This document shows, piece after piece, positions 45,013 through 56,843 of a stretch of DNA of 64,000 nt; within the stretch, counting starts at the first letter, position 1; every line of letters begins with the position of its first letter. The notes under the pieces were generated by a model that worked only from the letters and a program-made list of their open reading frames with translations, was not told where the DNA came from and did not search any database. A program made the translations under genes and the position numbers. Location of the stretch: NCBI RefSeq assembly GCF_034092375.1, contig NZ_CP139302.1, positions 1,550,001 to 1,614,000 of the forward strand, written 5' to 3'. The stretch comes from Prochlorococcus sp. MIT 1300 (GTDB taxonomy: Bacteria > Cyanobacteriota > Cyanobacteriia > PCC-6307 > Cyanobiaceae).

Positions 45013-45735
45013 TTAAGCGAGTAGATCAGGGGTTGTGGCGTTGGTTCTGTAGCTCCATTTCGCGGTGGGATCACCGGTCGTCATCCCTTGTATTTGAGCA
45101 ATGGATAAATCCCCACCGGTATAGAGCCCTTCCAAAGCACCTTTGGCATAGATGCCTATTCCAGAAACCCCTTTGGCTGTGGCTTGAGAAAAGGTCAGAT
45201 CAGGAGTAAAGACACCAACGATCTTGATTTCATCAGTGACATCTAAACCCTCGATGATGTCGACTTTTTCGCCATTGGGGTTATTGCCAGCTTTGCCGTA
45301 AATCCAATTGGAGAGATGTTGATCGGATTTGATCACAATGAGGTCTTTGGCACCATCTTTCTCGGACCGATAGGTGTTCCAGCCAAAGTCACCATGGAGT
45401 TCATCGGCACCTGAACCTCCTGTAATGATGTCGCGTCCATTGCCACCATGAACTAAATCATCTCCAGCACCACTATCAAGAACATCCCAACCGGCTAAAC
45501 CTCGAACGGTGTCAGCTCCCGTGCCACCTTCTATGACGGAACCTGATTTGACGGGTTGATTAAAAGTAGTTTGTTTGGCTTGAATTAAACCACCAGCAGA
45601 TGATGCTCTAGAGACACGATTGATATTGATTGTTTGATCCCAGGTATTCGTTGTGATATCTAATTGGGAATCAGAAATATCTTTGATTTGACTAGATATA
45701 GCGGTAGAGTTACTAAACCAGTTGTCAACAATATC
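44880..45735. repeat. Long direct duplication, left copy
   Basis: This segment aligns without gaps to 49736-50591 (constant offset 4856), covering the EVE 5' end, the right arm and the coding region for the last roughly 240 residues of the RTX protein. Differences are mostly single, often third-codon, substitutions, suggesting a duplication or exchange followed by purifying selection. Confidence 0.9.
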
Positions 45736-46950
45736 TTTTGTACTCTTGTTTTGAGAAAAGTCGAATTTAGTAGTAGAAGGAGTCGTGTTTTTAATTATTA
45801 TACGGCCAGAACTTGCAACCAAATTTGATCTATTGGAATCAGAATATATTTTCACTTCCATATGCTCATAATCATTTAATTGATCTATCTCGAACTTATC
45901 ATTCACGCTAAGCTCTCCATTGTTATTAAGTATTGCTGAACCTGTTAACCTGCCGGAGGTAAAGTCATCTCGATTTACATCGCTCAATGTATTCAAAACA
46001 TAGCCTGGTGAAAATCTCCAATATAGCCTTTTCCCTTCTTTTTCACCGGTCACCTTAACCTTAAAGGTGAAACTATCTCCTTCCTTGAAGCTATCAGATT
46101 CAGATAATTTTCCATTTAAATTATTGTAAATATTTAAGGTGTATGTTTTATGTTCAGATGCTCCACCTGACGAGTTTAATAGTTCTTCTATATTCCATGT
46201 CTGATAATAACCTCTGTTGTTTTTTGCGTATATCTTTTCTATTGAGCTAAGTCTATCTTCGTCACCAGTTATAGTGTTTTTTACAATGTAAAGACCTTTT
46301 AAAATACCTTCGAAACCTGTAAACTTTAGACTCTCTACTTTATAATCATAAATGGCGGTATCAATTCCATCCATCCCTCCAATATAGTCATTACCTGAAC
46401 CTCCCATAATCCTGTCGTTTCCTGAGTCTGCATAAATAGTGTCGTTGCCGCCGTCTCCATAAATAATGTCATTACCTGAACCTCCCCTAATCGTGTCGTT
46501 TCCTGAGCCTGCATAAATAGTGTCGTTGCCGCCTTCTCCCAAAATAATGTCATTTCCACCATGACTTGCAATTGTGTCGTCGTAGGCTGTCCCATAAATT
46601 GTGTCAGAATTTCTTAGTAAGATCTTTTGGAAATCGTATGGACTTTTTAAAACGTCAGATACAGTAACATTTGAATTCCTGCTGTTGCTACTCCCTAATG
46701 TCCCATAACTCGTGTAAATAGAGGTTATTTTCGATCTTTTATATCTACTAGTCGAGCTGTAATCGAAATTACCATATATATATTGATAGTAAGAACTTGT
46801 CCTCCCTTTTGTTCTGATTGTTCCTTTGTGAAAAATATAACTTTGATAATATTTAGACTTGCTAGTGTCTACATCAATATCTGGAATTGTACTAGGTACA
46901 ACACCAACCTCCACAGGGAGTTTGTACCGTCTATAATCTTCTATTGCCAA
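45013..46950 (-). CDS. RTX-repeat surface/secreted protein (passenger type 1)
   Basis: A 645-residue acidic protein without an N-terminal signal peptide, as usual for type I secretion. Calcium-binding nonapeptide repeats (GGSGNDxIxG) lie at residues about 116-205 and again at 478-528. Between them is a beta-rich region of about 120 residues (TYTLNIYNNLNGKLSESDSF onward). The last 240 residues are nearly the same as in the protein at 49869-51968 and end in GIGIYAKGALEGLYTGGDLS, which resembles the C-terminal 'bluetail' domain of cyanobacterial surface proteins (from memory). The start is TTG at 46950, six bases after a strong GGAGG. Likely exported to the cell surface; ligand unknown. Confidence 0.85.
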   Translation of the reverse strand: MAIEDYRRYKLPVEVGVVPSTIPDIDVDTSKSKYYQSYIFHKGTIRTKGRTSSYYQYIYGNFDYSSTSRYKRSKITSIYTSYGTLGSSNSRNSNVTVSDVLKSPYDFQKILLRNSDTIYGTAYDDTIASHGGNDIILGEGGNDTIYAGSGNDTIRGGSGNDIIYGDGGNDTIYADSGNDRIMGGSGNDYIGGMDGIDTAIYDYKVESLKFTGFEGILKGLYIVKNTITGDEDRLSSIEKIYAKNNRGYYQTWNIEELLNSSGGASEHKTYTLNIYNNLNGKLSESDSFKEGDSFTFKVKVTGEKEGKRLYWRFSPGYVLNTLSDVNRDDFTSGRLTGSAILNNNGELSVNDKFEIDQLNDYEHMEVKIYSDSNRSNLVASSGRIIIKNTTPSTTKFDFSQNKSTKDIVDNWFSNSTAISSQIKDISDSQLDITTNTWDQTININRVSRASSAGGLIQAKQTTFNQPVKSGSVIEGGTGADTVRGLAGWDVLDSGAGDDLVHGGNGRDIITGGSGADELHGDFGWNTYRSEKDGAKDLIVIKSDQHLSNWIYGKAGNNPNGEKVDIIEGLDVTDEIKIVGVFTPDLTFSQATAKGVSGIGIYAKGALEGLYTGGDLSIAQIQGMTTGDPTAKWSYRTNATTPDLLA

Positions 46951-47252
46951 AGTTTGCCTCCTTTTGATTCTCCTACAAGGACAAGGGCAGGCTTCCCCTT
47001 CCTAGGTTATCTAGTCAACCTAGCAGTCATTTAGAAGCTCTTGCCTTGCCATTCACAATTTGGACTAGATAAATAGGCTGGAGCGAATTCGCTTTTCTGG
47101 ATCTTCCAATAACACCTCTAAACCCCTCAAAAAAGCTGATTCAGCCATTGGCTCTCTTCCTAATGGTTTAAATAATCAACCCTAAATCTCAGCACATGCA
47201 GCATGTCGTTATCTATGTACTAGGCGTCTTTTAAATGCAGTAAATAAAAATG
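46951..47252. other. Non-coding stretch upstream of the RTX gene
   Basis: It contains the RTX ribosome site (CCTCC on this strand near 46957) and a small inverted repeat CTAGGTT...AACCTAG near 47003-47024. One short leftward frame at 47065-47148 (27 codons, MAESAFLRGLEVLLEDPE) has an AGGAAGAG stretch just upstream and might be translated, but it is too short to claim. Confidence 0.35.
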
Positions 47253-47398
47253 GTGTGAACTTTGTGTGAACGGATTTTTCAAATTCCTTGTAATCGCTTT
47301 CCCTCACTCAAATGCCGCTTTTCATTAGCCAATAATTTATCTCAGTCATAGCAAGGGATTTGGGCGAAAATGGGCGGTTTGAATAAGGTTTGAATAAA
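47253..47398 (+). repeat. Repeat unit R2: left arm, EVE 5' fragment, right arm
   Basis: Left twin repeat GTGTGAAC-TTT-GTGTGAAC (47253-47271), then GGATTTTTCAAATTCCTTG, then a core encoding on the minus strand a truncated EVE N-terminus (start 47349, MTEINYWLMKSGI, stop at 47308). Right twin repeat GTTTGAATAAG / GTTTGAATAAA at 47377-47398. The right arm differs in sequence from those of R1, R3 and R5 but keeps the 11-base period. Confidence 0.88.
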
Positions 47399-47426
47399 CC
47401 CTCGATCTCAGGGGCTCATAGATTGT

Positions 47427-47702
47427 CTAGTTACCAAAACGATAGTGCTTTCGGACTGCCTTATGCACTTCCCATGTACAAGACATCCCTTGAGGGAAGA
47501 CAACTAGATCACCGACTCCAAACCTGACTGGCTGCCCTCCATCAGGAGTAACGCTCACATCTCCTTCGAGAATTAAACAAGTTTCTTTGTCGCTATATGT
47601 CCAAGGGAACTCACTGGGATCACAAGTCCATATCGGCCATTGCTTTATTCCTAGTTCGTTGATAGTGCTTTCAGGGCAGGGTGATGTTAGGGAGATTTCC
47701 AA
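47427..47702 (-). CDS. Cupin-domain protein (Cupin_3 type)
   Basis: A 91-residue single-domain cupin. The beta-barrel motifs are WPIWTCDPSEFPWTYSDKET, CLILEGDVSVTPDGGQPV and FGVGDLVVFPQGMSCTWEVH, as in the DUF861/Cupin_3 group related to ureidoglycine aminohydrolase. Metal-binding histidines are few, so enzymatic activity is uncertain; a sensor or sugar/ureide-binding role is possible. It has the island's typical leftward orientation and begins just right of repeat R2. Confidence 0.85.
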   Translation of the reverse strand: MEISLTSPCPESTINELGIKQWPIWTCDPSEFPWTYSDKETCLILEGDVSVTPDGGQPVRFGVGDLVVFPQGMSCTWEVHKAVRKHYRFGN

Positions 47703-47784
47703 TTAATTATCTCGAGCTCAACCTCTTTCTAGCTGTTTTTAGCAGCGCGTCTTTGAATAGCGTCGAAGCTGATTTTTATGACCA

Positions 47785-47877
47785 ATGGAAGAATTAACCA
47801 AAAGAGTGGAAGAGCTTGAGAAGAGAGTCCAGCATTTAGAAGCAATGCTGCGATTCCAAGTAAGAAAAAGCAAATGA
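47785..47877 (+). CDS. Putative 30-residue coiled-coil micropeptide
   Basis: A short rightward frame encoding MEELTKRVEELEKRVQHLEA and ten more residues ending in RKSK. The a/d heptad pattern (L, V, L, V, L, M) is a textbook coiled coil with a basic tail, which is unlikely by chance. No clear Shine-Dalgarno sequence was identified. It lies between the cupin and the HNH-like gene on the opposite strand. It might oligomerise or act as a partner or antitoxin-like peptide; that is speculation. Confidence 0.45.
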   Translation: MEELTKRVEELEKRVQHLEAMLRFQVRKSK

Positions 47878-47886
47878 TCTCCATAG

Positions 47887-48975
47887 CTATTCACTGACTT
47901 CAGAGACTTCTTCTCTTGCATCAAGAACCGGTCTTAGTAGTTGGATTCGCCTTTTAATGTTGGCTATTGCGGCAGCTTCTTGAGTCACTTCGTCATCGCA
48001 ACCCTCAAAGATTTCATCTGATTGAACTTTTAGCCAATTTAAAAAGTCTTCGGCTGTACATGACTTGTTAAACCCTCCCATCCATGAGTGAAAGGCGTTG
48101 TGGAGCTTAGAGTCAATCGCAATTACATTATTAATTTCATATTGAAAAAATTCATAATTACTTTTGTCATACAAATGATGCGCAGTTAGGGAAAAGTCTA
48201 GGTTTGTATTGCTTTTTTTTCTTTTGGTTACCTCGCAATATTGTTTCGCTTTCTTTTTGGCTAATTTAGTTACCTCTGAAAGCTTCTTATTGTCAGCTAT
48301 TAGTGGTTTTGATACTTCTTTTAGTGTTTGAAGAATAGATTCAGAGACTGCTGAATTCCATGACTTTGTTGATCTGCTTTTGCAAATACTTTGTAAAGCC
48401 ATGGATAAGCGCTTTATCCCATTAGCGGAATAACTAAGACCAGTTTCATCAGGTAAATCAATAAAATGATCATCATGTTTCATTGGAGGTCTTCCATGTT
48501 CTTCCCCTCTTTGCTCATGTTCCAATGCAGCTTTTAATAGATCCTGCCTATTTGCTAAACGAAGGATATAGCGAGTTTGCTGAGTATTAACAAATGCTTT
48601 CCCACTTTGTATGGTCACTCCTTTTTTAAGGCCACCAATATCAGCCACTCTTTCCATTACACATGACCTGACATATTTTTTGTGTCTTCGATCAAAAAAA
48701 GTTTTTATCAGCTTCCTCCATGGCCTCTCCTTGTCAACAGTTTCTTCGACATACTTAGCTAATTCAAGTGCGCCTGCCTTTGTGAACTTTCTTGCACCAT
48801 GCTTTTTATTTATATAGATAAAATGTTCTTCCACATTCAGTGTCCAATCGTCATCAGGATCTTCATCAAAGAAATCACAAAATCTATAAATATCTTTGAC
48901 ACTCACTCTTAATATATCTGCTAATTTCTCGGCAGATATCAGAGTTGATTTAGGCTGATTAGAAACTTTATTCAT
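47887..48975 (-). CDS. HNH-like protein with N-terminal helix-turn-helix-like region
   Basis: A 362-residue protein that I do not recognise as a whole. Residues 12-35 (EKLADILRVSVKDIYRFC) look like a helix-turn-helix. Residues 100-280 are lysine-rich and helical. Residues 264-301 contain AHHLYDKSNYEF, then INNVIAIDSKLHNAFHSWMGG, an arrangement of His-His, Asn and His-x2-Phe-His like the beta-beta-alpha-metal fold of HNH nucleases. Zinc-binding CxxC pairs are absent. A nuclease role is inference. Its ATG follows the stop of the J-domain gene directly (TAA-ATG), so the two form a coupled pair. Confidence 0.72.
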   Translation of the reverse strand: MNKVSNQPKSTLISAEKLADILRVSVKDIYRFCDFFDEDPDDDWTLNVEEHFIYINKKHGARKFTKAGALELAKYVEETVDKERPWRKLIKTFFDRRHKKYVRSCVMERVADIGGLKKGVTIQSGKAFVNTQQTRYILRLANRQDLLKAALEHEQRGEEHGRPPMKHDDHFIDLPDETGLSYSANGIKRLSMALQSICKSRSTKSWNSAVSESILQTLKEVSKPLIADNKKLSEVTKLAKKKAKQYCEVTKRKKSNTNLDFSLTAHHLYDKSNYEFFQYEINNVIAIDSKLHNAFHSWMGGFNKSCTAEDFLNWLKVQSDEIFEGCDDEVTQEAAAIANIKRRIQLLRPVLDAREEVSEVSE

Positions 48976-49563
48976 TTAATTAAAGATTACCAGTAAAGAA
49001 TCTCTCATTTCTTTTAACTTCTCAAAGATATTTCTATCACCACCGTTGTAGCCTGTATCTGGATGATATTTGAAAGATAATTTCTTAAATGCGCTTTGAA
49101 TGTCTTGTTTAGTACCTGTATTTTTGTCGACATTGAAAACTTCCCAAGGTCTAAAGTTCTTAAAGATATCAATGCCATTGATAACTCCATAGCCGGAAGT
49201 AAGGTTTTTTTCTTCTCCTGGAAGTTCAACCCATTCTCTGAAATAGTGCTCCCAAGTAAGCCTTTTGGCAGCGCTAAGACCTGTATTTTTATGGTATATC
49301 TTCCACTCCTGATCTTCTTTGAGCTGAGTATAGTTGGTTTTATTCCATGCAATGGCAACAGCAGTTTTTATATCTTTTAATGGCATCTCTACAAGAGTTA
49401 AAGGAGGTGGAGAAAGTGCAAACTTAATTAATTCAATTACTTTATCTTCTGGGGAATTATAAACATTACAAAAAACCTGAATCTTTTCAAGTGTTGAGGA
49501 GTCAATTCCTCTTGGATCCCTAGAAGATTTTTTCCCTTTTGGCAAAATTCTTTCTAATAGCAA
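48976..49563 (-). CDS. J-domain protein with novel N-terminus
   Basis: A 195-residue protein whose C-terminal residues 138-191 form a J domain: FRPWEVFNVD, helix II KQDIQSAFKKLSFKYHPD with the HPD motif at 167-169, and helix III RNIFEKLKEMRDSLL. The N-terminal 135 residues have no recognised family. J domains stimulate Hsp70 ATPase, so it should recruit DnaK or a DnaK-like protein to a specific client, perhaps the HNH-like protein encoded immediately downstream without any gap. A C-terminal J domain is unusual for general DnaJ, which points to a specialised role. Confidence 0.78.
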   Translation of the reverse strand: MLLERILPKGKKSSRDPRGIDSSTLEKIQVFCNVYNSPEDKVIELIKFALSPPPLTLVEMPLKDIKTAVAIAWNKTNYTQLKEDQEWKIYHKNTGLSAAKRLTWEHYFREWVELPGEEKNLTSGYGVINGIDIFKNFRPWEVFNVDKNTGTKQDIQSAFKKLSFKYHPDTGYNGGDRNIFEKLKEMRDSLLVIFN

Positions 49564-49672
49564 TCCTTATTAGGATAGCAGCGCTGAAACTCTTAAGTAT
49601 ATATTTTTGCTTTTTGTTGGACTGCATTTCTTTGTTCCCAGAGAATGCGCCTCTTAATTGAAGTGAATAGGA

Positions 49673-49868
49673 GTTTGAGTAAAGTTTGAGTAAATCTTGA
49701 CGATTCGCTGAGAGTAGTTGCTACCACTCAAATGCCGCTTTTCATTAGCCAGTAGTTTATCTCAGTCATAGCAAGGGATTTGGGCGAATTGCAGTGTGTG
49801 AACCTTGTGTGAACTTTTGGAAAACGAGCAGTTCTTAAGCCTGTCTTAATTGTGCCTTAAAAAGGCTT
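49673..49868 (+). repeat. Repeat unit R3: left arm, EVE 5' fragment, right arm
   Basis: Left twin repeat GTTTGAGTAAA twice in perfect tandem (49673-49694), a diverged linker, the core with a truncated EVE N-terminus on the minus strand (start 49769, stop at 49728), and the right twin repeat GTGTGAACCTT / GTGTGAACTTT at 49796-49817 with the same tail as R1. Confidence 0.88.
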
Positions 49869-50591
49869 TTAAGCGAGTAGATCAGGGGTCGTGGCGTTGG
49901 TTCTGTAGCTCCATTTGGCGGTGGGATCACCGGTCGTCATCCCTTGTATTTGAGCAATGGATAAATCCCCACCGGTATAGAGCCCTTCCAAAGCACCTTT
50001 GGCGTAGATGCCCACACCACTAACTCCTTTTGCTGTGGCTTGAGCAAAGCTCAGATCAGGAGTAAAGACTCCAACAATTTTGATTTCATCAAAGGCATCT
50101 AAGCCTTCCATGATGTCAACTTTCTCACCATTGGGGTTATTGCCAGCTTTGCCATAAATCCAATTGGAGAGATGTTGATCGGATTTGATCACGATGAGAT
50201 CTTTGGCGCCATCTTTCTCGGAGCGATAGGTATTCCAACCAAAGTCACCATGCAGTTCATCGGCACCTGAACCACCGGTAATGATGTCGCGTCCATTGCC
50301 ACCATGAACTAAATCATCTCCAGCTCCACTATCTAAAACATCCCAACCTGCTAAACCGCGAACAGTATCAACACCATTACCACCATCAATAACGGAACCC
50401 GATTTCACCGGCTGATTAAAAGTAATTTGTTTGGCTTGAATTAAACCACCAGAAGACGCAGCTCGGGAGACACGATTGATATTGATTGTTTGATCCCAAG
50501 TATTGGTAGTAATAGCTAATTGGGAATCAGAAATATCTTTGCTTTGAGAGGTAATAGCTGTTGAAGTTGAGAACCAATTATCAACTATACT
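49736..50591. repeat. Long direct duplication, right copy
   Basis: Gap-free counterpart of 44880-45735. It includes the EVE fragment, the right arm and the coding region for the shared C-terminal domain of the second RTX protein. Confidence 0.9.
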
Positions 50592-51968
50592 ACTAACTTT
50601 ATCTGATTCCTGAAAGTTATATTTACTAGACGAAGTCTTTTCTTCAATTTTGTCAATATAACCAAATCTCACATAGTCTATTGTTGGCTTTAAGGAAGTA
50701 GGTCCATCATCAAAACTGCTAATATCTATGGGATAATAAAGATATGCCATGTCACCATTTATATCATCTTCTATGCGAATCTCATATTTGTAATTAGTAG
50801 AATATTTGTCCTTTTTCTCAAGAACTACTGGTTCATCTAATTTAATATTTTTTGTAAGCCAGCTCAAATCACTTAGACTTACTTCATTATTTATAGGATC
50901 GGGGTATTTCGCTGCTTGGATATACAGATCTCCTCCAGGATCTGAAAATCCATTTACAGTTCCAAATGAAGGGTATCTGTAGTTGCCATATATTTTTCCG
51001 TTAAAAGTATAGTATTTACCTGATTCCTTATCATTAAATGAATGAGCAGAACGCCAATTTTTATTGTATATAGACTCTTGTCCCCAAGGCCATGGAGTAC
51101 CTGCATAATCTGTAAAATGACCTTCTTTAAATAGACCATCTTTTGAAATAACAAGATTTAATTTTGTCAAATTAGATTCATAATCTTCCTTCGCCCATTT
51201 TCTTATTCTTTGTGTGTTAGTTTTTTTGTTATTTATATATAGTTCAAAGTCAAAGAACTTTTCTGGTTTTCCGTTTATTGTCTGGAGCCCCCAGGTACCA
51301 TTTTCTTGCTCGATTTCAGGCTGCACATTGCCTTGAATAACTAAGTCACCTTCCTTAGATATAGTCATATCATATAAATCTGTATGCCATCCGGAATGTA
51401 TTAAATTAACCCACCCCCGATCACCGTTTGAATTATACTTAACTAGTAATATTTGACTGTCATAGTCCTTAGGATGAGGGTTCCCATGATAAATATTTTG
51501 CTTAAGATCTTCAAATTTTCCTCCTCTAATATGGAAGGCTGCGAAGATATTCCCATTCTTATCTATTTCAATGTCAACCCAATCACCATCAAAATCTCCG
51601 CTATCAATTTGTTTCACCCACTTTAATTGACCTTTAGATGAAACTTTTGCAATAAACGCATCATTATCATCAGCCCATAATCCCATTGCATTCCTTCTAA
51701 ACATTCCCCCTATATAAATATCATTATTTTGGTCTATTTCTATATCTTCTATTACTGTAGTTGGATCTCTATAGCTTGTTCTAGGGTAATTCGCTCCAAA
51801 AGGTAATTCCCAATTTAGTTTTCCACTTGAGTCGTATGAGCTAAGTGTATCTCCTCTATATGCGCCCCCATTATGTGAGAAGCTTTGACTGATTACTAAG
51901 CCTCCATTTGTATCAATCGCAAATTGATCAATTGCCCCTTTTTTTTGTAGATAAATTGTTTGTGGCAT
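49869..51968 (-). CDS. RTX-repeat surface/secreted protein with beta-propeller passenger
   Basis: A 699-residue protein. Residues 1-200 contain repeated beta-propeller-type units (IDQFAIDTNGGLVISQSF, VIEDIEIDQNNDIYIGGMF, WVDIEIDKNGNIFAAFHIRG, LYDMTISKEGDLVIQGNV) resembling SBBP repeats. A central region of about 250 residues is unassigned. The last 240 residues, with RTX repeats (GGNGVDTVRGLAGWD to GGSGADELHGDFGWN) and the YTGGDLSIAQIQGM end, are almost the same as in the protein at 45013-46950. No signal peptide; type I export is likely. So the two proteins combine one C-terminal domain with different N-terminal passengers. Confidence 0.85.
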   Translation of the reverse strand: MPQTIYLQKKGAIDQFAIDTNGGLVISQSFSHNGGAYRGDTLSSYDSSGKLNWELPFGANYPRTSYRDPTTVIEDIEIDQNNDIYIGGMFRRNAMGLWADDNDAFIAKVSSKGQLKWVKQIDSGDFDGDWVDIEIDKNGNIFAAFHIRGGKFEDLKQNIYHGNPHPKDYDSQILLVKYNSNGDRGWVNLIHSGWHTDLYDMTISKEGDLVIQGNVQPEIEQENGTWGLQTINGKPEKFFDFELYINNKKTNTQRIRKWAKEDYESNLTKLNLVISKDGLFKEGHFTDYAGTPWPWGQESIYNKNWRSAHSFNDKESGKYYTFNGKIYGNYRYPSFGTVNGFSDPGGDLYIQAAKYPDPINNEVSLSDLSWLTKNIKLDEPVVLEKKDKYSTNYKYEIRIEDDINGDMAYLYYPIDISSFDDGPTSLKPTIDYVRFGYIDKIEEKTSSSKYNFQESDKVSSIVDNWFSTSTAITSQSKDISDSQLAITTNTWDQTININRVSRAASSGGLIQAKQITFNQPVKSGSVIDGGNGVDTVRGLAGWDVLDSGAGDDLVHGGNGRDIITGGSGADELHGDFGWNTYRSEKDGAKDLIVIKSDQHLSNWIYGKAGNNPNGEKVDIMEGLDAFDEIKIVGVFTPDLSFAQATAKGVSGVGIYAKGALEGLYTGGDLSIAQIQGMTTGDPTAKWSYRTNATTPDLLA

Positions 51969-52222
51969 ACACTAATTTGACTCCTTTTTTGTCCACATAG
52001 CTTTTAGCCCCCATCTCACGCTTTACGCGCAACGAGTAAATCTTAAGCAAATATTAAATCATCTTTCATCTAGATTGTCTAGTTGGCTTTACTAGAGCAT
52101 GTTGCGCTGGCTTTTAAGAAACCAAGCATTGACTTGGAACGTTGGAATAGGTCTATGTATTGCTCTTGGCTTGGCTCGCTACCTGAGGCATTGATAGAAC
52201 ACCATCAGTCATGAAAAGAGTG
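51969..52222. other. Non-coding stretch upstream of the second RTX gene
   Basis: It contains the GGAG-type ribosome site of the RTX gene (AAAAAGGAG on the minus strand near 51982-51990) and a possible small rightward frame described separately. No other structure was recognised. Confidence 0.35.
52099..52194 (+). CDS. Putative 31-residue membrane micropeptide
   Basis: A short frame starting MLRWLLRNQALTWNVGIG and ending ARYLRH. It has a basic N-terminus, a single hydrophobic stretch (VGIGLCIALGLA) and a basic end, consistent with a one-helix membrane peptide. No strong ribosome site is visible. Included because the composition is more protein-like than chance, but evidence is thin. Confidence 0.35.
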   Translation: MLRWLLRNQALTWNVGIGLCIALGLARYLRH

Positions 52223-52533: not shown

Positions 52534-55500
52534 ATGGGAAATCAAATTTCTCCTACAACTAATCCTAAAGGCACAACTTATAAGACAAACGATGGTGATT
52601 ATAACGATCAGGAATTTATCAATTACGGCAGACTAGAAATCTCTGGCACGCTGACTAACAACGCTGGCGGCACACTGACTAACAAGGCTGGCGGCAGGCA
52701 GAATTTCAGTCAGGAAAGTGCGCCGAAAGAGATGTATTACAACCTAGACAACAACGGCACGATGACTAACGAAGGCACGATGACTTTCGAGGGGCCTTCT
52801 TTGAATTATTACTATTTAGTCACGCTGAGTAACGAGGGTACGCTGAACAACAGCGGCACGCTGAAGTTCAGGAAAAGCAGCCTCGTGTTCCAAAACGGCA
52901 CGTTGAATAACAATGCTGGCGGCACGCTCATCAACGAAACAGAATTTGACCAAAACCTCACCCTGAATAACAAAGGTATTTTTACCAACAAACGCAGGGT
53001 GGCTAACTACGGCACGCTGAATAACAAGGCGGGCGGCACGCTAGTTAACAAAGATAGTTTCTTTAACGGCACGAAGCTGAACAATGAGAAAGGTGGCACG
53101 CTGACTAACGAGAAAGACGGCAAGCTTTCATACAGAATTACGGTGATTAACGCCGGCACGCTGAATAACTACGGCAATCTTGTTTCGACCAACGCAGGTA
53201 GGCAAGATTGGAGTGACCCCACCATACTGACCAACGACGGCACACTGAATAACTACGGCACGATTGAAAACGTAGCAGACACCACGTTGACCAATAACGG
53301 CACGCTGGATAACGACGCTACGCTGAATAACGCCGGCATGCTGTATAACGGCGCTACGCTGACTAACTACCTGACGCTGAATAACAAAGGCTATCTGCGT
53401 AACCAGGCTGGCGGCACGCTGAATAATGACGGCAGTCTGACTAACTACCTGACGCTGGATAACATAGGCAATCTGTATAACAAGTCTGGCGGCACGCTGG
53501 ATAACGACGACGAGCTTAGTAACTACGGCACACTGACTAATGAAGAAGGCGGCACGCTGTATAACACTGGCAATCTGTACAACAAGTCTGTCGGCACGCT
53601 GAATAACTACGGCATTCTTGATTTGACCAACGTAGGTAGGCAAGACACCATACTGACCAACGATGGCACACTGAATAACTACGGCACGCTGAATAACCAC
53701 GCTACGCTGAACAACACTTGGGGCACGCTCACCAACTCCGGCACACTGACTAACGAGGCTGGGGGCACGCTGAATAACAAACGCACGCTGGATAACGACG
53801 CTACGCTGAATAACTACGGCACGCTGAATAACGACGCTACGCTGGATAACTACGACAAGCTCACCAACGCCGGCACGCTGAATAACGACGCTACGCTGAA
53901 TAACCGCTACCAGCTGTTTAACGAAGGTACGCTGGATAACGACGGCACGCTTAGGAGCGACGTCACACTGACTAATGAAGAAGGCGGTACGCTGGATAAC
54001 GACGGCACGCTTAGGAACGACGGCACACTGACTAACAAGGCTGGCGGCACGCTGAATAACAAAGGCAATCTGTATAACAAGGCTGGCGGCACGCTGAATA
54101 ACTACGGCATTCTTGATTCGACCAACGTAGGTAGGCAAGACACCATACTGACCAACGATGGCACACTGAATAACTACGGCACGCTGAATAACGACGCTAC
54201 GCTGGATAACACTTGGGGCACGCTGACCAAACTGACCAACGATGGCACACTGAATAACTACGGCGCGCTGAATAACGACGGCATATTGATTAACCAAGGC
54301 ACGCTGAAAAACGAAGGCACGTTGCTCAACTACGGAACGATTACCGGTTCAGGAGAAATCATTGGTGATATCACGAATAACGGAACGATTTCACCAGGCA
54401 ACTCAGCCGGTGGTCATTTATTTACAGGCAACTTTTATCACCTTGATGACAGCATTAAAAAAATTGAATTAGCTGGCTTGCATGATGGTAATGGTGTGCG
54501 TACAGGTGCAGATCACGACTGGCTAGAAATTACTGGTGATCTTGTTTTAGCTGGAGCACTAGAGGTTTCATTGATTGATGGATTCCAACTTTCTACAGGC
54601 GATAGTTTTGTGATTGCAAAAGTTGGAGGAGATCTGATTGGTCGATACGACGACCTAAAGGAAGGTGATTCGGTTGGAACGTTCAAAGCAGATGCAGATG
54701 ACGGCGGTAGCCTTGAGTTATTCATCACTTATGAAGGTGGTGATGGTAATGATGTAGAGCTCTATAGCAAAAGCATTGTTGGGAATGAAGCCTCTGATCA
54801 TCAAGATTTTGTTGGCAATAGTTTTGACTACAAGTTTTTTAATCAGGGAAATAATCAATATGGAATTCAAAGCGATGCTGGTGGAGAGATCGTTTCTCTT
54901 GGCGAGATGACTACTGTTAATTTCGATGATCAAGCATTCAATCTGTCTGAGGATGTTAAAGACACCTTTGATCAAGTCACCGGAATGAATGATGTCTCCG
55001 GTCAGATGTTCCGTTTGTACAACACAGTTTTTGATCGCCTAGCAGATGTCAATGGCTTAAAGGGATCGATTGAAGTCAATAGAGAGGCCGTTAAAACCTA
55101 TAGAGAAATAGCGACAGAATTTCTTCAATCAGAAGAGTTCAAGAGTCTCTATGGAGAGACTATGAGTGATCAGACGTTTATTACCACGCTGTATAGCAAC
55201 GCGTTGGATCGTGATGCTGATGCAGAAGGTTTAGCGCACTATGAAAGGGCGCTTAGTTCTGGAGAAAAGACGAGAGAACAGGTCGTGTTCGATATTTCTG
55301 AATCGCCCGAGCATAAAGAGATTTTCACTGCAATAACTGGGTTAACTAGCTCTCAGGCACTGTTCTCTTCTAATGCTTTGCTGAAGGATTCAGGTTTTAG
55401 TTATGGAGCTGGTAGCAATGATCTCAACTTTGGCGAGACAAAACAAAGAGAAGATGTGACTTATTTTTATCCGCAAGATAATTGGCAAGTCAGTGGTCAA

Positions 55501-55638
55501 GGATCTGATTTAGCTGCAGATCAAATCACAAAGATGAGCTTAGAGACGTCGCAAGTAATGCTTGGCAGTCAACAAGGTTCTAGCCTTTTCCAGCAAGAAC
55601 AGTATTCCGACCTTCTAGATTTATCTGGTTTAGCTTGA
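52534..55638 (+). CDS. 1034-residue low-complexity GTLNN-repeat protein with DUF4214 C-terminus
   Basis: Residues about 33-610 consist of short degenerate units such as GTLNNYGTLNNDATLDN, AGGTLNNKGNLYN, with Asn, Gly, Thr and Leu at fixed spacing, expected to form a parallel beta-helix like those of adhesins. Next come an autotransporter-like segment (TGSGEIIGDITNNGTISPGN, then GADHDWLEITGDLVLAG) and, at about residues 822-935, a DUF4214 domain (MFRLYNTVFDRLADVNGLKG, TLYSNALDRDADAEGLAHYE). No signal peptide is visible, so non-classical export is assumed. The repeat DNA is rich in GGC, CTG and ACG codons, unlike its AT-rich neighbours, which suggests foreign origin or repeat expansion from a GC-rich seed. 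Confidence 0.87.
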   Translation: MGNQISPTTNPKGTTYKTNDGDYNDQEFINYGRLEISGTLTNNAGGTLTNKAGGRQNFSQESAPKEMYYNLDNNGTMTNEGTMTFEGPSLNYYYLVTLSNEGTLNNSGTLKFRKSSLVFQNGTLNNNAGGTLINETEFDQNLTLNNKGIFTNKRRVANYGTLNNKAGGTLVNKDSFFNGTKLNNEKGGTLTNEKDGKLSYRITVINAGTLNNYGNLVSTNAGRQDWSDPTILTNDGTLNNYGTIENVADTTLTNNGTLDNDATLNNAGMLYNGATLTNYLTLNNKGYLRNQAGGTLNNDGSLTNYLTLDNIGNLYNKSGGTLDNDDELSNYGTLTNEEGGTLYNTGNLYNKSVGTLNNYGILDLTNVGRQDTILTNDGTLNNYGTLNNHATLNNTWGTLTNSGTLTNEAGGTLNNKRTLDNDATLNNYGTLNNDATLDNYDKLTNAGTLNNDATLNNRYQLFNEGTLDNDGTLRSDVTLTNEEGGTLDNDGTLRNDGTLTNKAGGTLNNKGNLYNKAGGTLNNYGILDSTNVGRQDTILTNDGTLNNYGTLNNDATLDNTWGTLTKLTNDGTLNNYGALNNDGILINQGTLKNEGTLLNYGTITGSGEIIGDITNNGTISPGNSAGGHLFTGNFYHLDDSIKKIELAGLHDGNGVRTGADHDWLEITGDLVLAGALEVSLIDGFQLSTGDSFVIAKVGGDLIGRYDDLKEGDSVGTFKADADDGGSLELFITYEGGDGNDVELYSKSIVGNEASDHQDFVGNSFDYKFFNQGNNQYGIQSDAGGEIVSLGEMTTVNFDDQAFNLSEDVKDTFDQVTGMNDVSGQMFRLYNTVFDRLADVNGLKGSIEVNREAVKTYREIATEFLQSEEFKSLYGETMSDQTFITTLYSNALDRDADAEGLAHYERALSSGEKTREQVVFDISESPEHKEIFTAITGLTSSQALFSSNALLKDSGFSYGAGSNDLNFGETKQREDVTYFYPQDNWQVSGQGSDLAADQITKMSLETSQVMLGSQQGSSLFQQEQYSDLLDLSGLA
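52630..54350 (+). repeat. Coding tandem-like repeat tract (15-18 base units)
   Basis: Degenerate units built on GGCACGCTGAATAAC recur throughout. Longer blocks also recur, for example a stretch of roughly 90 bases around 53601-53690 is repeated at about 54091-54180. The tract is open in an antisense frame too, as expected from its composition. Confidence 0.9.
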
Positions 55639-56843
55639 TGATCAATCGAAATAAATGGGCCGTAAATAAATTCACTCTCAGAGTTTTGATGGCAGCTAGT
55701 TCATTTCTCCTTCTATTCGTTATTGCTCAATTAATTACAGCGACGTCATCCTTTAAACCAAAACTATTCAGCCGTAGTCTCCAATCTTCAATTGAGTCAC
55801 TTCGACAACAAATGGATATTCCCGGGGCTTCAATTTCGGTGATTGATGACGGCAGGATTGTTTGGGCGAGGGGCTTCGGAATAGCAGACAAAACTACTCA
55901 ACGAAAGGTAACCGCTTCCACATTATTTACTGCCAATTCGATTACCAAAACACTAACTTCTTTGGCTGTAGTGAAACTGCTTGCCGAAAAAGGGATTGCC
56001 TTGGATGAACCGGTGAACCGTTACCTCACAAACTGGAAGATTCCAGACAACAGCTTCACAAAACGGGTACCAGTGACATTCAGGATGCTCCTTAATCACA
56101 CTGCAGCTCTTACCTCGCCTTATCCCACTGGTTGTTGTGGCCCCAGAGAAACATTGCCAACGATGCAGCAGTTTTTAGAGGGAAAACCACCTGCAACTAA
56201 TTTGCCAGTTCAGGTAACAAACGTGCCAGGCGAAAGTTATGCCTACTGCAATGGCTGTTACTCGGTGCTACAGCCAGCTCTTGAGGCCATTGGAGATAAC
56301 AGCTTCAAATTATTAATGAAGGAGTTAGTGCTAGCGCCTTCCAATATGGGTGTTAGCACTTTTGATGACACGTTCTTCCTAGAAGACACTTCCACTATCG
56401 CAATTCCATACGATTCTGATGGCACTGTTCATCAACACGCGCCTATGCGCAATCCCATCCTCTCTACAGGTCTGCTCTGGACAACAGCAATTGATCTAGC
56501 CCGTTTTAATTTGGCCTTTGCTAGTGCACTGAGAGGAGAAAATGATCTGATTAATCAAAAACAGGCTGAAGCCTTGATAATTCCAAGTTCAACACCAACG
56601 CGCAGCCTGGGATTTTTTATTGGTGATAAGGATGCACAAGAAAATGCAAAGGGTGAGTACCTTTTTCATAGTGGATCCAATATTGGCTATCTCTCACTTT
56701 CTATCATTAGCAAAGACGGTAAGAAGGGCGCTGTGTTCCTGATCAACAAAGGACCAAATCCTTTCACAACAACCGATGTGCCTGAATACGCCTTTATTAC
56801 AGATAGTCTGAAGCTGATCAACAAATATTATCGATGGGATTGA
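55638..56843 (+). CDS. Serine hydrolase of the beta-lactamase / penicillin-binding (class C) family
   Basis: A 401-residue exported or membrane-anchored protein. An N-terminal hydrophobic segment (LRVLMAASSFLLLFVIAQL, residues 14-32) follows basic residues. The catalytic SxxK is Ser101-Ile-Thr-Lys104, the Tyr-x-Asn motif is Tyr203-Cys-Asn205, and the third motif is HSGSNIG near residue 345. A Cys pair (TGCCGP) is unusual. The family includes esterases, D-aminopeptidases and carboxypeptidases; antibiotic hydrolysis should not be assumed. Its ATG overlaps the stop of the repeat-protein gene (TGATG), so both are translated from one message. Confidence 0.87.
   Translation: MINRNKWAVNKFTLRVLMAASSFLLLFVIAQLITATSSFKPKLFSRSLQSSIESLRQQMDIPGASISVIDDGRIVWARGFGIADKTTQRKVTASTLFTANSITKTLTSLAVVKLLAEKGIALDEPVNRYLTNWKIPDNSFTKRVPVTFRMLLNHTAALTSPYPTGCCGPRETLPTMQQFLEGKPPATNLPVQVTNVPGESYAYCNGCYSVLQPALEAIGDNSFKLLMKELVLAPSNMGVSTFDDTFFLEDTSTIAIPYDSDGTVHQHAPMRNPILSTGLLWTTAIDLARFNLAFASALRGENDLINQKQAEALIIPSSTPTRSLGFFIGDKDAQENAKGEYLFHSGSNIGYLSLSIISKDGKKGAVFLINKGPNPFTTTDVPEYAFITDSLKLINKYYRWD

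What the first reader, a model, noticed from the sequence alone, without database searches (positions are those of the whole stretch)
52534..55638. GTLNN-repeat protein with foreign-looking codon use and DUF4214 end
Nearly 600 residues are short degenerate units with regular Leu, Asn, Gly and Thr, predicted here to form a long beta-helix. The DNA uses GGC, CTG and ACG heavily, unlike the AT-rich DNA around it. Larger internal duplications (for example about 53601-53690 and 54091-54180) indicate growth by recombination. The DUF4214 end suggests a surface or phycobilisome-linker-like interaction. Length variation between cells is likely.
Basis: partly seen in the sequence, partly recalled or inferred. 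Interest (0 to 1): 0.55.

Follow-up and report, generated by a model that had tools for sequence, protein, structure and literature searches.

The report
Repeat-built surface protein with swapped tail
A marine Prochlorococcus gene encodes a predicted rod-like protein, built of about 70 copies of a short repeat, that looks like the outer part of an autotransporter but lacks that system's export parts and ends in a different, exchangeable tail, so it hints that bacteria can move such proteins between secretion systems.

Summary
Window 52534-55635 is an intact 1034-aa gene of Prochlorococcus MIT1300 (identified by exact assembly size). Residues 30-604 are mostly 6- and 8-residue units predicted to form a beta-helix. 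The codon deviation is not an amino-acid effect (GC3 0.67, expected 0.32) but is confined to the array. Above background, the DNA unit recurs in two of 399 other family genomes, both of one genus; it was amplified separately in each lineage. A 495-bp-offset internal duplication is confirmed; one homologous site differs by 1.4 kb between two relatives.

Unexpected: residues about 594-748 are predicted to have the fold of an autotransporter autochaperone cap. Yet the protein has no Sec signal and no barrel, and no barrel was found in the genome. The same passenger type has an RTX tail in MIT0701, a DUF4214 tail here, and none in genome G328. In a low-GC genus this tail ends proteins of many kinds.

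Best reading: an autotransporter-type passenger re-plugged onto type I secretion, probably an adhesin. Export and function are inferred. The phycobilisome-linker idea is not supported.

The parts
52534..55638 (+). whole gene, 1034 aa plus stop, ATG start; TAA in frame two codons upstream
   Evidence: single match in the own genome at E<=1
52534..52620 (+). N-cap, residues 1-29 (MGNQISPTTNPKG...), no hydrophobic signal; the start resembles MIT0701 L013 (MANQNYPNPNPKG) and G328 L060 (xGKQISPNPIPKG)
   Evidence: GC3 0.214, normal
52621..54345 (+). repeat array, residues 30-604, mostly 6- and 8-residue units (GTLxN), predicted beta-helix; DNA unit GGCACGCTGAAYAAC, 24 places with up to one mismatch, all in this stretch
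   Evidence: Fil_haemagg PF05594 at residues 446-516
53488..53735 (+). first copy of internal duplication (pair with 53983-54230)
53983..54230 (+). second copy of internal duplication, offset 495, 91% identical over 248 nt
54346..54771 (+). core, residues 605-746, predicted autochaperone-like cap of the beta-helix (fold match spans residues about 594-748)
   Evidence: (pLDDT 81.7, pTM 0.81); homologues
54772..55341 (+). exchangeable C-terminal module, residues 747-936, with DUF4214 at 860-930 (55111-55323)
   Evidence: predicted structure poor
55342..55635 (+). C-terminal extension without known relatives, residues 937-1034, ending DLLDLSGLA
   Evidence: no match at E<=0.001 outside the own genome among 300 genomes; three at E 0.065-0.0998

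Best explanation
The gene encodes a surface or released beta-helix protein that is modular: an autotransporter-type passenger (N-cap, amplified beta-helix, autochaperone-like cap) joined to a type I secretion tail in place of a Sec signal and an outer-membrane barrel. SHOWN: sequence modules, repeat amplification, different tails on related passengers, lack of an N-terminal hydrophobic signal in this protein, no PF03797 barrel found in the genome, HlyB/HlyD homologues in the genome. PREDICTED: beta-helix and cap folds. INFERRED: the C-terminal module is read by the HlyB/HlyD exporter; the chain leaves C-terminus first; the cap folds outside and templates the helix towards the N-terminus, as in autotransporters; the array is a spacer or adhesive surface whose length drifts by recombination between near-identical units. 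Likely role: contact with cells, particles or grazers.
For: Fold: array strands of 4 residues every 6, pLDDT mostly 80-90 over residues 230-530; Foldseek first antigen 43 (E 3.9e-4, prob 0.97); VIA-align Vag8 Z 26.6, rmsd 3.2, 313 aligned, and pertactin Z 20.3, rmsd 3.9, 376 aligned. Cap: Ssp Z 16.4, rmsd 2.6, 166 aligned; IcsA autochaperone 3ml3 Z 12.2, rmsd 2.7, 135 of 156, model 55-209; the autotransporter rows with Z over 9 align at their passengers' C-terminal ends. Different tails: RTX in MIT0701, DUF4214 here, none in two G328 members. Export: no hydrophobic N-terminus in this protein (0.12 against 2.63 in a control gene; 0.17-0.95 in five relatives with the starts I chose); no PF03797 in the own genome, controls positive; HlyB-like (663 bits) and HlyD-like (159 bits) genes adjacent. 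The DUF4214 tail is C-terminal in 9 of 9 scanned proteins of genus g57, behind matrixin-type protease, cyclophilin, RCC1 or cadherin parts in seven of them; three have RTX over the cut-off. In print, DUF4214 proteins are discussed as possible extracellular or S-layer-like proteins (PMC11970703, passages).
Against: No export experiment. The HlyB and HlyD homologues are below the curated subfamily cut-offs (663 of 725.6; 159 of 208.7); an outer-membrane TolC was not searched. The protein has no RTX repeats of its own. The DUF4214 module was modelled poorly (pLDDT mostly under 50). The last 98 residues have no relative, so the secretion signal proper is unknown. G328 members have no tail, so either the tail is not needed or those copies use another route; for one of them (L060) an upstream start codon would add a hydrophobic stretch (1.78). 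For the array alone, phage tailspikes and polysaccharide lyases match with similar Z (15-18), so its fold by itself does not point to autotransporters; the cap does. Broken copies occur in G070, so the family is dispensable there.
Confidence: 0.6

Rival explanations
1. Relic or decaying gene: a former autotransporter or two-partner secretion adhesin that lost its signal and barrel and drifts, kept only because repeats make long open frames.
For: Broken copies in G070 and a truncated copy in MIT0701; the duplicated copies differ by 13 non-synonymous and 4 synonymous codons, near a neutral ratio.
Against: The frame is open over 1034 codons, with normal codon use in cap and tail. The cap is 63% identical to a MIT0701 copy (88 of 139). 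The tail is of a type carried by many other proteins. No TPS domain or barrel remnant in the Pfam scan.
Confidence: 0.15
2. Plain horizontal transfer: the whole gene came recently from a GC-rich donor like the g30 genomes, which explains the codon use.
For: Above background the DNA unit is shared with two g30 genomes only; synonymous usage of the MIT1300 array correlates 0.70 with the MIT0701 array, 0.49 with MIT0701 genes and 0.21 with its own genome.
Against: Only the array deviates; cap and tail have local usage. In MIT0701 itself the cap is AT-rich (GC3 0.297 against 0.518 expected). Arrays are 0.73-0.74 alike between genomes and 0.86 and 0.84 within. The neighbouring genes differ. The DUF4214 tail points to another genus.
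Confidence: 0.15
3. The codon bias of the array is made in place, by GC-biased gene conversion among repeats or by selection on the repeat DNA, and is independent of origin.
For: In two hosts of different GC the array GC3 is almost the same (0.671 and 0.659) and above each host's expectation; the bias extends to variable residues.
Against: The codons themselves are shared more than by chance (same codon for same residue 0.49 against 0.34 null), as common descent predicts; the two causes are not exclusive.
Confidence: 0.3
4. DUF4214 makes it a phycobilisome-linker-like or photosynthetic assembly protein.
For: The tail profile gives weak PDB matches to linkers (Glr2806 E 0.006, taken as a linker from recall; LR2 0.44; CpcG 0.69).
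Against: No linker family in Pfam; the same tail ends many unrelated proteins with exoprotein-type domains; Prochlorococcus has no phycobilisomes (recalled).
Confidence: 0.03

Closest known systems
Antigen 43 / AIDA-type and pertactin-type autotransporter passengers (type Va secretion)
   Same: predicted parallel beta-helix with an autochaperone-like C-terminal cap
   Different: no Sec signal, no beta-barrel in the protein, none found in the genome
IcsA autochaperone region (3ml3) and the autochaperone domain of Rojas-Lopez et al. 2018 (PMC5767081)
   Same: predicted fold, and place at the C-terminal end of a beta-helix
   Different: described there as exclusively associated with beta-helical autotransporter passengers (passages read; that survey covered autotransporters); here it stands before a DUF4214 or RTX tail
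Prochlorococcus MIT0701 proteins (L025 885 aa, L024 588 aa, L013 partial)
   Same: cap 58-63% identical; GTLNN array in L025; N-cap in L013
   Different: followed by RTX repeats instead of DUF4214
RTX exoproteins of type I secretion
   Same: no N-terminal signal, C-terminal module; HlyB/HlyD homologues in the genome
   Different: no RTX repeats in this protein
DUF4214-tailed proteins of genus g57 (about 35% GC in the loci read)
   Same: C-terminal module 33-42% identical
   Different: those read end directly after DUF4214; here 98 more residues follow
Filamentous haemagglutinin-type repeats (PF05594)
   Same: repeat region scores 33.6 bits against cut-off 21.5
   Different: no TPS domain found

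Membership tests
Classical autotransporter (type Va) | N-terminal Sec signal peptide | tested here: not met
   highest 12-residue hydropathy in the first 60 residues 0.12 against 2.63 in a control gene; in-frame stop two codons upstream; no dedicated signal-peptide program was at hand
Classical autotransporter (type Va) | C-terminal beta-barrel PF03797 | tested here: not met
   none in the protein at E<=1 and none in the genome at E<=0.01, controls E. coli and Caulobacter positive
Classical autotransporter (type Va) | right-handed parallel beta-helix passenger | tested here: met
   predicted model; its best matches include autotransporter passengers; handedness not measured directly
Classical autotransporter (type Va) | autochaperone cap | tested here: met
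   fold only: 3ml3 Z 12.2, rmsd 2.7, 135 aligned; Ssp Z 16.4, rmsd 2.6, 166 aligned; chaperone activity not tested
Two-partner secretion (type Vb) | N-terminal TPS domain | tested here: not met
   Pfam at E<=1 gives only DUF4214 and Fil_haemagg; TpsB in the genome not searched
Type I secretion substrate | no cleaved N-terminal signal | tested here: met
   no hydrophobic N-terminal stretch
Type I secretion substrate | C-terminal export signal read by an ABC exporter | not testable with these tools
   inferred from different tails on related passengers
Type I secretion substrate | exporter genes in the genome | tested here: inconclusive
   HlyB-like and HlyD-like homologues adjacent at G000:C1:1347409-1351708, both under curated cut-offs; TolC not searched
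RTX protein | PF00353 nonapeptide repeats | tested here: not met
   none in P0001; present in 3 of 3 MIT0701 members of A3
Phycobilisome linker | linker domain match | tested here: inconclusive
   no Pfam linker match at E<=1; tail profile to Glr2806 E 0.006, others above 0.4
DUF4214 (PF13946) | match over the curated cut-off | tested here: met
   84.6 bits against 23.2

The most novel reading that the evidence does not exclude
A barrel-less autotransporter: type V passengers, with their autochaperone cap, work as portable folding modules that plug into type I secretion, because both routes deliver the C-terminus first and the cap can seed the helix either way. Picocyanobacteria exchange the tails (RTX, DUF4214, none) while the array keeps its own DNA composition and is amplified anew in each lineage.
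Probability: 0.4. Interest if true: 0.72.

Novelty: new variant of a known kind. Interest (0 to 1): 0.6.

Why it matters
If true, the autochaperone cap would not be restricted to autotransporters, and it becomes testable whether C-terminus-first delivery is all it needs. [quoted passage not shown] this is a candidate surface protein with a built-in source of length variation. The sharp codon boundary inside one gene also warns against calling whole genes foreign from average composition.

Tried and rejected
Phage or plasmid cargo: no phage record matched the protein or the array DNA; in viral contigs none of 89 pattern stretches encoded a relative of the core and none held the doubled DNA unit exactly. 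Plasmid matches (61 records, all under 60% identity, none covering 80% in one place) look like general beta-helix or DUF4214 similarities.

Whole-gene transfer as the sole cause of the codon bias: rejected because only the array deviates. Two-partner secretion and classical autotransport: membership not met. The 389-aa ORF on the minus strand (53128-54297) is taken as a by-product of repeats free of stops in that frame (inference). Solved relatives by sequence: none for P0001 at E<=0.1 or the core at E<=1; the designed leucine-rich-repeat rows for the tail (best E 3.6e-5) were not followed.

Strain comparison within the genus: the held genus contains only this genome. Papers: among the rows listed by searches (several of which listed only a part of their hits) I saw no title or abstract start on this gene, on a DUF4214 tail as an export cassette, or on an autochaperone with a type I tail; most subscription journals are not held. 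Passages of PMC11559063, PMC4949707, PMC7522525, PMC11970703, PMC11357015, PMC11945961, PMC5767081 and PMC3297439 were read by term search; no paper was read whole.

A first codon table had tail and C-terminus segments out of frame; only the corrected one search is used for segments. One search read several minus-strand loci on the wrong strand; one search replaced it.

Full report
What it is. The window is G000:C1:1550001-1614000 of a one-contig 1,855,146-bp genome. That is exactly the assembly size of Prochlorococcus MIT1300, LLVII grade, 41.4% GC, a closed genome from PacBio reads (PMC11559063, Table 3 and passages). Libraries with 21-28 kb inserts make a collapsed 1.7-kb array unlikely (inference). 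The gene is single copy in its genome.

Observation. The ORF, repeats, codon skew and duplication are confirmed with numbers in the observation check. The codon result needs care. Units are copies of each other, so z 17.9 overstates the sample. But the bias lies along the whole array (GC3 0.60-0.79 in eight blocks), also outside the xTLxN pentads (0.637), and drops to normal on both sides within the same gene.

Relatives of the array. The unit GGCACGCTGAAYAAC with up to one mismatch occurs 24 times in MIT1300, all inside the array, 16 times in G029, all inside the L025 gene, and 5 times in G070. No other of the 400 genomes shows more than 3 on one strand; one further g30 genome, G177, has 3, which is within background. 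Both belong to one genus, g30, which I take as the LLIV clade (recalled). In 36-nt windows the best partner is 0.864 alike inside the MIT1300 array (0.827 when subsampled to 22 units), 0.840 inside the MIT0701 array and 0.733-0.744 between them. So the unit is shared but was amplified separately. Codon choice is shared above chance (0.49 against 0.34), although part of this could reflect the GC-rich MIT0701 genome, whose array correlates 0.71 with its own genes. The MIT0701 array is above its host's expectation (0.659 against 0.525), while its cap is far below (0.297 against 0.518). Composition therefore follows the module, not the host. Whether common descent, transfer or biased conversion did this is not settled. 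No tree was built.

Length variation. Between a SIMPL-type gene and a carotenoid-oxygenase-like gene (names from looking at the ORFs, not from a family scan), G070 and MIT0701 are collinear on both sides. MIT0701 has 53 bp where G070 has 1,487 bp, covering the N-cap, the array and part of the cap. At another site, with a shared upstream flank, MIT0701 has two copies and G070 one broken copy. Three further g30 genomes of 74-85% completeness had no match to the protein. Variation inside a population was not testable.

The cap. Residues 605-746 are the best conserved part (58-63% to three MIT0701 copies). A core search in 400 family genomes found matches in 24, but only G000, G029, G070, G328 and G334 at E below 1e-15. 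In named genomes, 33 loci of 182 candidate stretches encode relatives: three in MIT0701 and 30 outside cyanobacteria. I scanned eight of those 30 with their C-terminal parts, chosen for their endings: two end in autotransporter barrels, two in RTX, one in a dockerin, one in a PEP-CTERM motif under its cut-off (18.4 of 20.7), and two gave no family. With 23 sequences the cap models well (pLDDT 81.7, pTM 0.81). Foldseek puts the Ssp autotransporter first (E 1.6e-4, prob 1.00). VIA-align gives Ssp Z 16.4, IcsA fragment Z 15.0, antigen 43 Z 13.8, pertactin Z 12.9 and the isolated IcsA autochaperone Z 12.2; the autotransporter rows with Z over 9 align at the C-terminal end of the passenger, and one non-autotransporter, a metagenomic beta-helix (7jvi), scores 13.5. 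A sequence model agrees weakly (autotransporter EprS, 4 of 6 members at E<=10, best 0.002, the window's own 0.017). In print, the autochaperone is described as exclusive to beta-helical autotransporter passengers, in a survey of autotransporters, and as the first rung that seeds folding (PMC5767081, passages). Folding from the C-terminus is discussed for autotransporters in PMC3297439 (passages).

The tail. Residues 747-936 match a module found in 27 of 300 family genomes, 22 of the 27 in genus g57, with 2-12 matches each, weak and partial ones included. I scanned nine of the ten g57 proteins found: DUF4214 is C-terminal in 9 of 9, behind matrixin-type protease, cyclophilin, RCC1 or cadherin parts in seven; RTX passes the cut-off in three and falls short in one; one has nothing else. 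All ten stop just after it. The MIT1300 protein continues for 98 residues with no match at E<=0.001 elsewhere. Two G328 members stop right after the cap.

How it works. Type I secretion reads a C-terminal signal and moves the chain through both membranes in one step (PMC3297439, passages). The genome holds HlyB-like and HlyD-like genes side by side, and no autotransporter barrel was found in it. If the tail is the signal, the C-terminus leaves first (recalled for type I secretion), the cap follows, and the helix can fold on the cap unit by unit. This is the same order as in autotransport, and would explain why the passenger can change machines. This step is inference. Role: adhesion or shielding, by analogy with antigen 43 and with giant exoproteins of marine Synechococcus (PMC4949707, passages); not tested.

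Limits. The full-length model rests on four sequences (mean pLDDT 59.1). The tail is in effect unmodelled. The exporter homologues are under curated cut-offs. Starts of relatives were chosen by similarity; an upstream start in L060 would add a hydrophobic stretch of 1.78, below the control's 2.63. MIT1300's own start is bounded by a stop. The antigen 43 Foldseek alignment has a low TM-score (0.15 and 0.24), perhaps because long helices differ in curvature; the VIA-align rows are firmer, but tailspikes and lyases score almost as high for the array.

Noticed in passing
window 45013-46950 and 49869-51968 (-): Two RTX proteins share a C-terminal module of 254 residues, 89% identical, with DNA 90% alike over 679 nt; the genome has five near-full copies, these two included, the other three at 720-730 kb. 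This is a second shared tail type in the same genome.
   Followed up: partly
window 46000-52000: AT-rich stretch (GC 0.34-0.42) with RTX genes and a DnaJ-domain protein; possibly a genomic island beside the repeat gene.
   Followed up: no
L060, L083 (G328): Two short members (cap plus degenerate repeats) that end directly after the cap with ...MIFGYR and ...DMIFA; L060 probably starts with a TTG. The same genome has a separate 2727-aa frame with an autotransporter barrel.
   Followed up: partly
L010, L016, L004 (G070): Broken copies with in-frame stops; the family appears to decay in this genome.
   Followed up: partly
L014 (G056): RCC1-repeat protein with a DUF4214 tail; PMC4949707 (passage) reports alpha-tubulin-suppressor-like (RCC1-type, recalled) exoproteins raised in co-culture in WH8102. 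Whether those carry this tail was not checked.
   Followed up: no
L129:3682-4404: A 241-aa gene directly upstream of the HlyB/HlyD homologues, with no NCBIfam match at E<=1e-5; it looks like a SurA-type rotamase by eye.
   Followed up: no
window 55635-56843 (+): Beta-lactamase-fold protein (PF00144) with a hydrophobic N-terminus; the listed ORF overlaps the end of the repeat gene by four bases.
   Followed up: no
window 46387-46554: 81-bp tandem repeat (2.1 copies, 93%) inside the 45013-46950 RTX gene.
   Followed up: no
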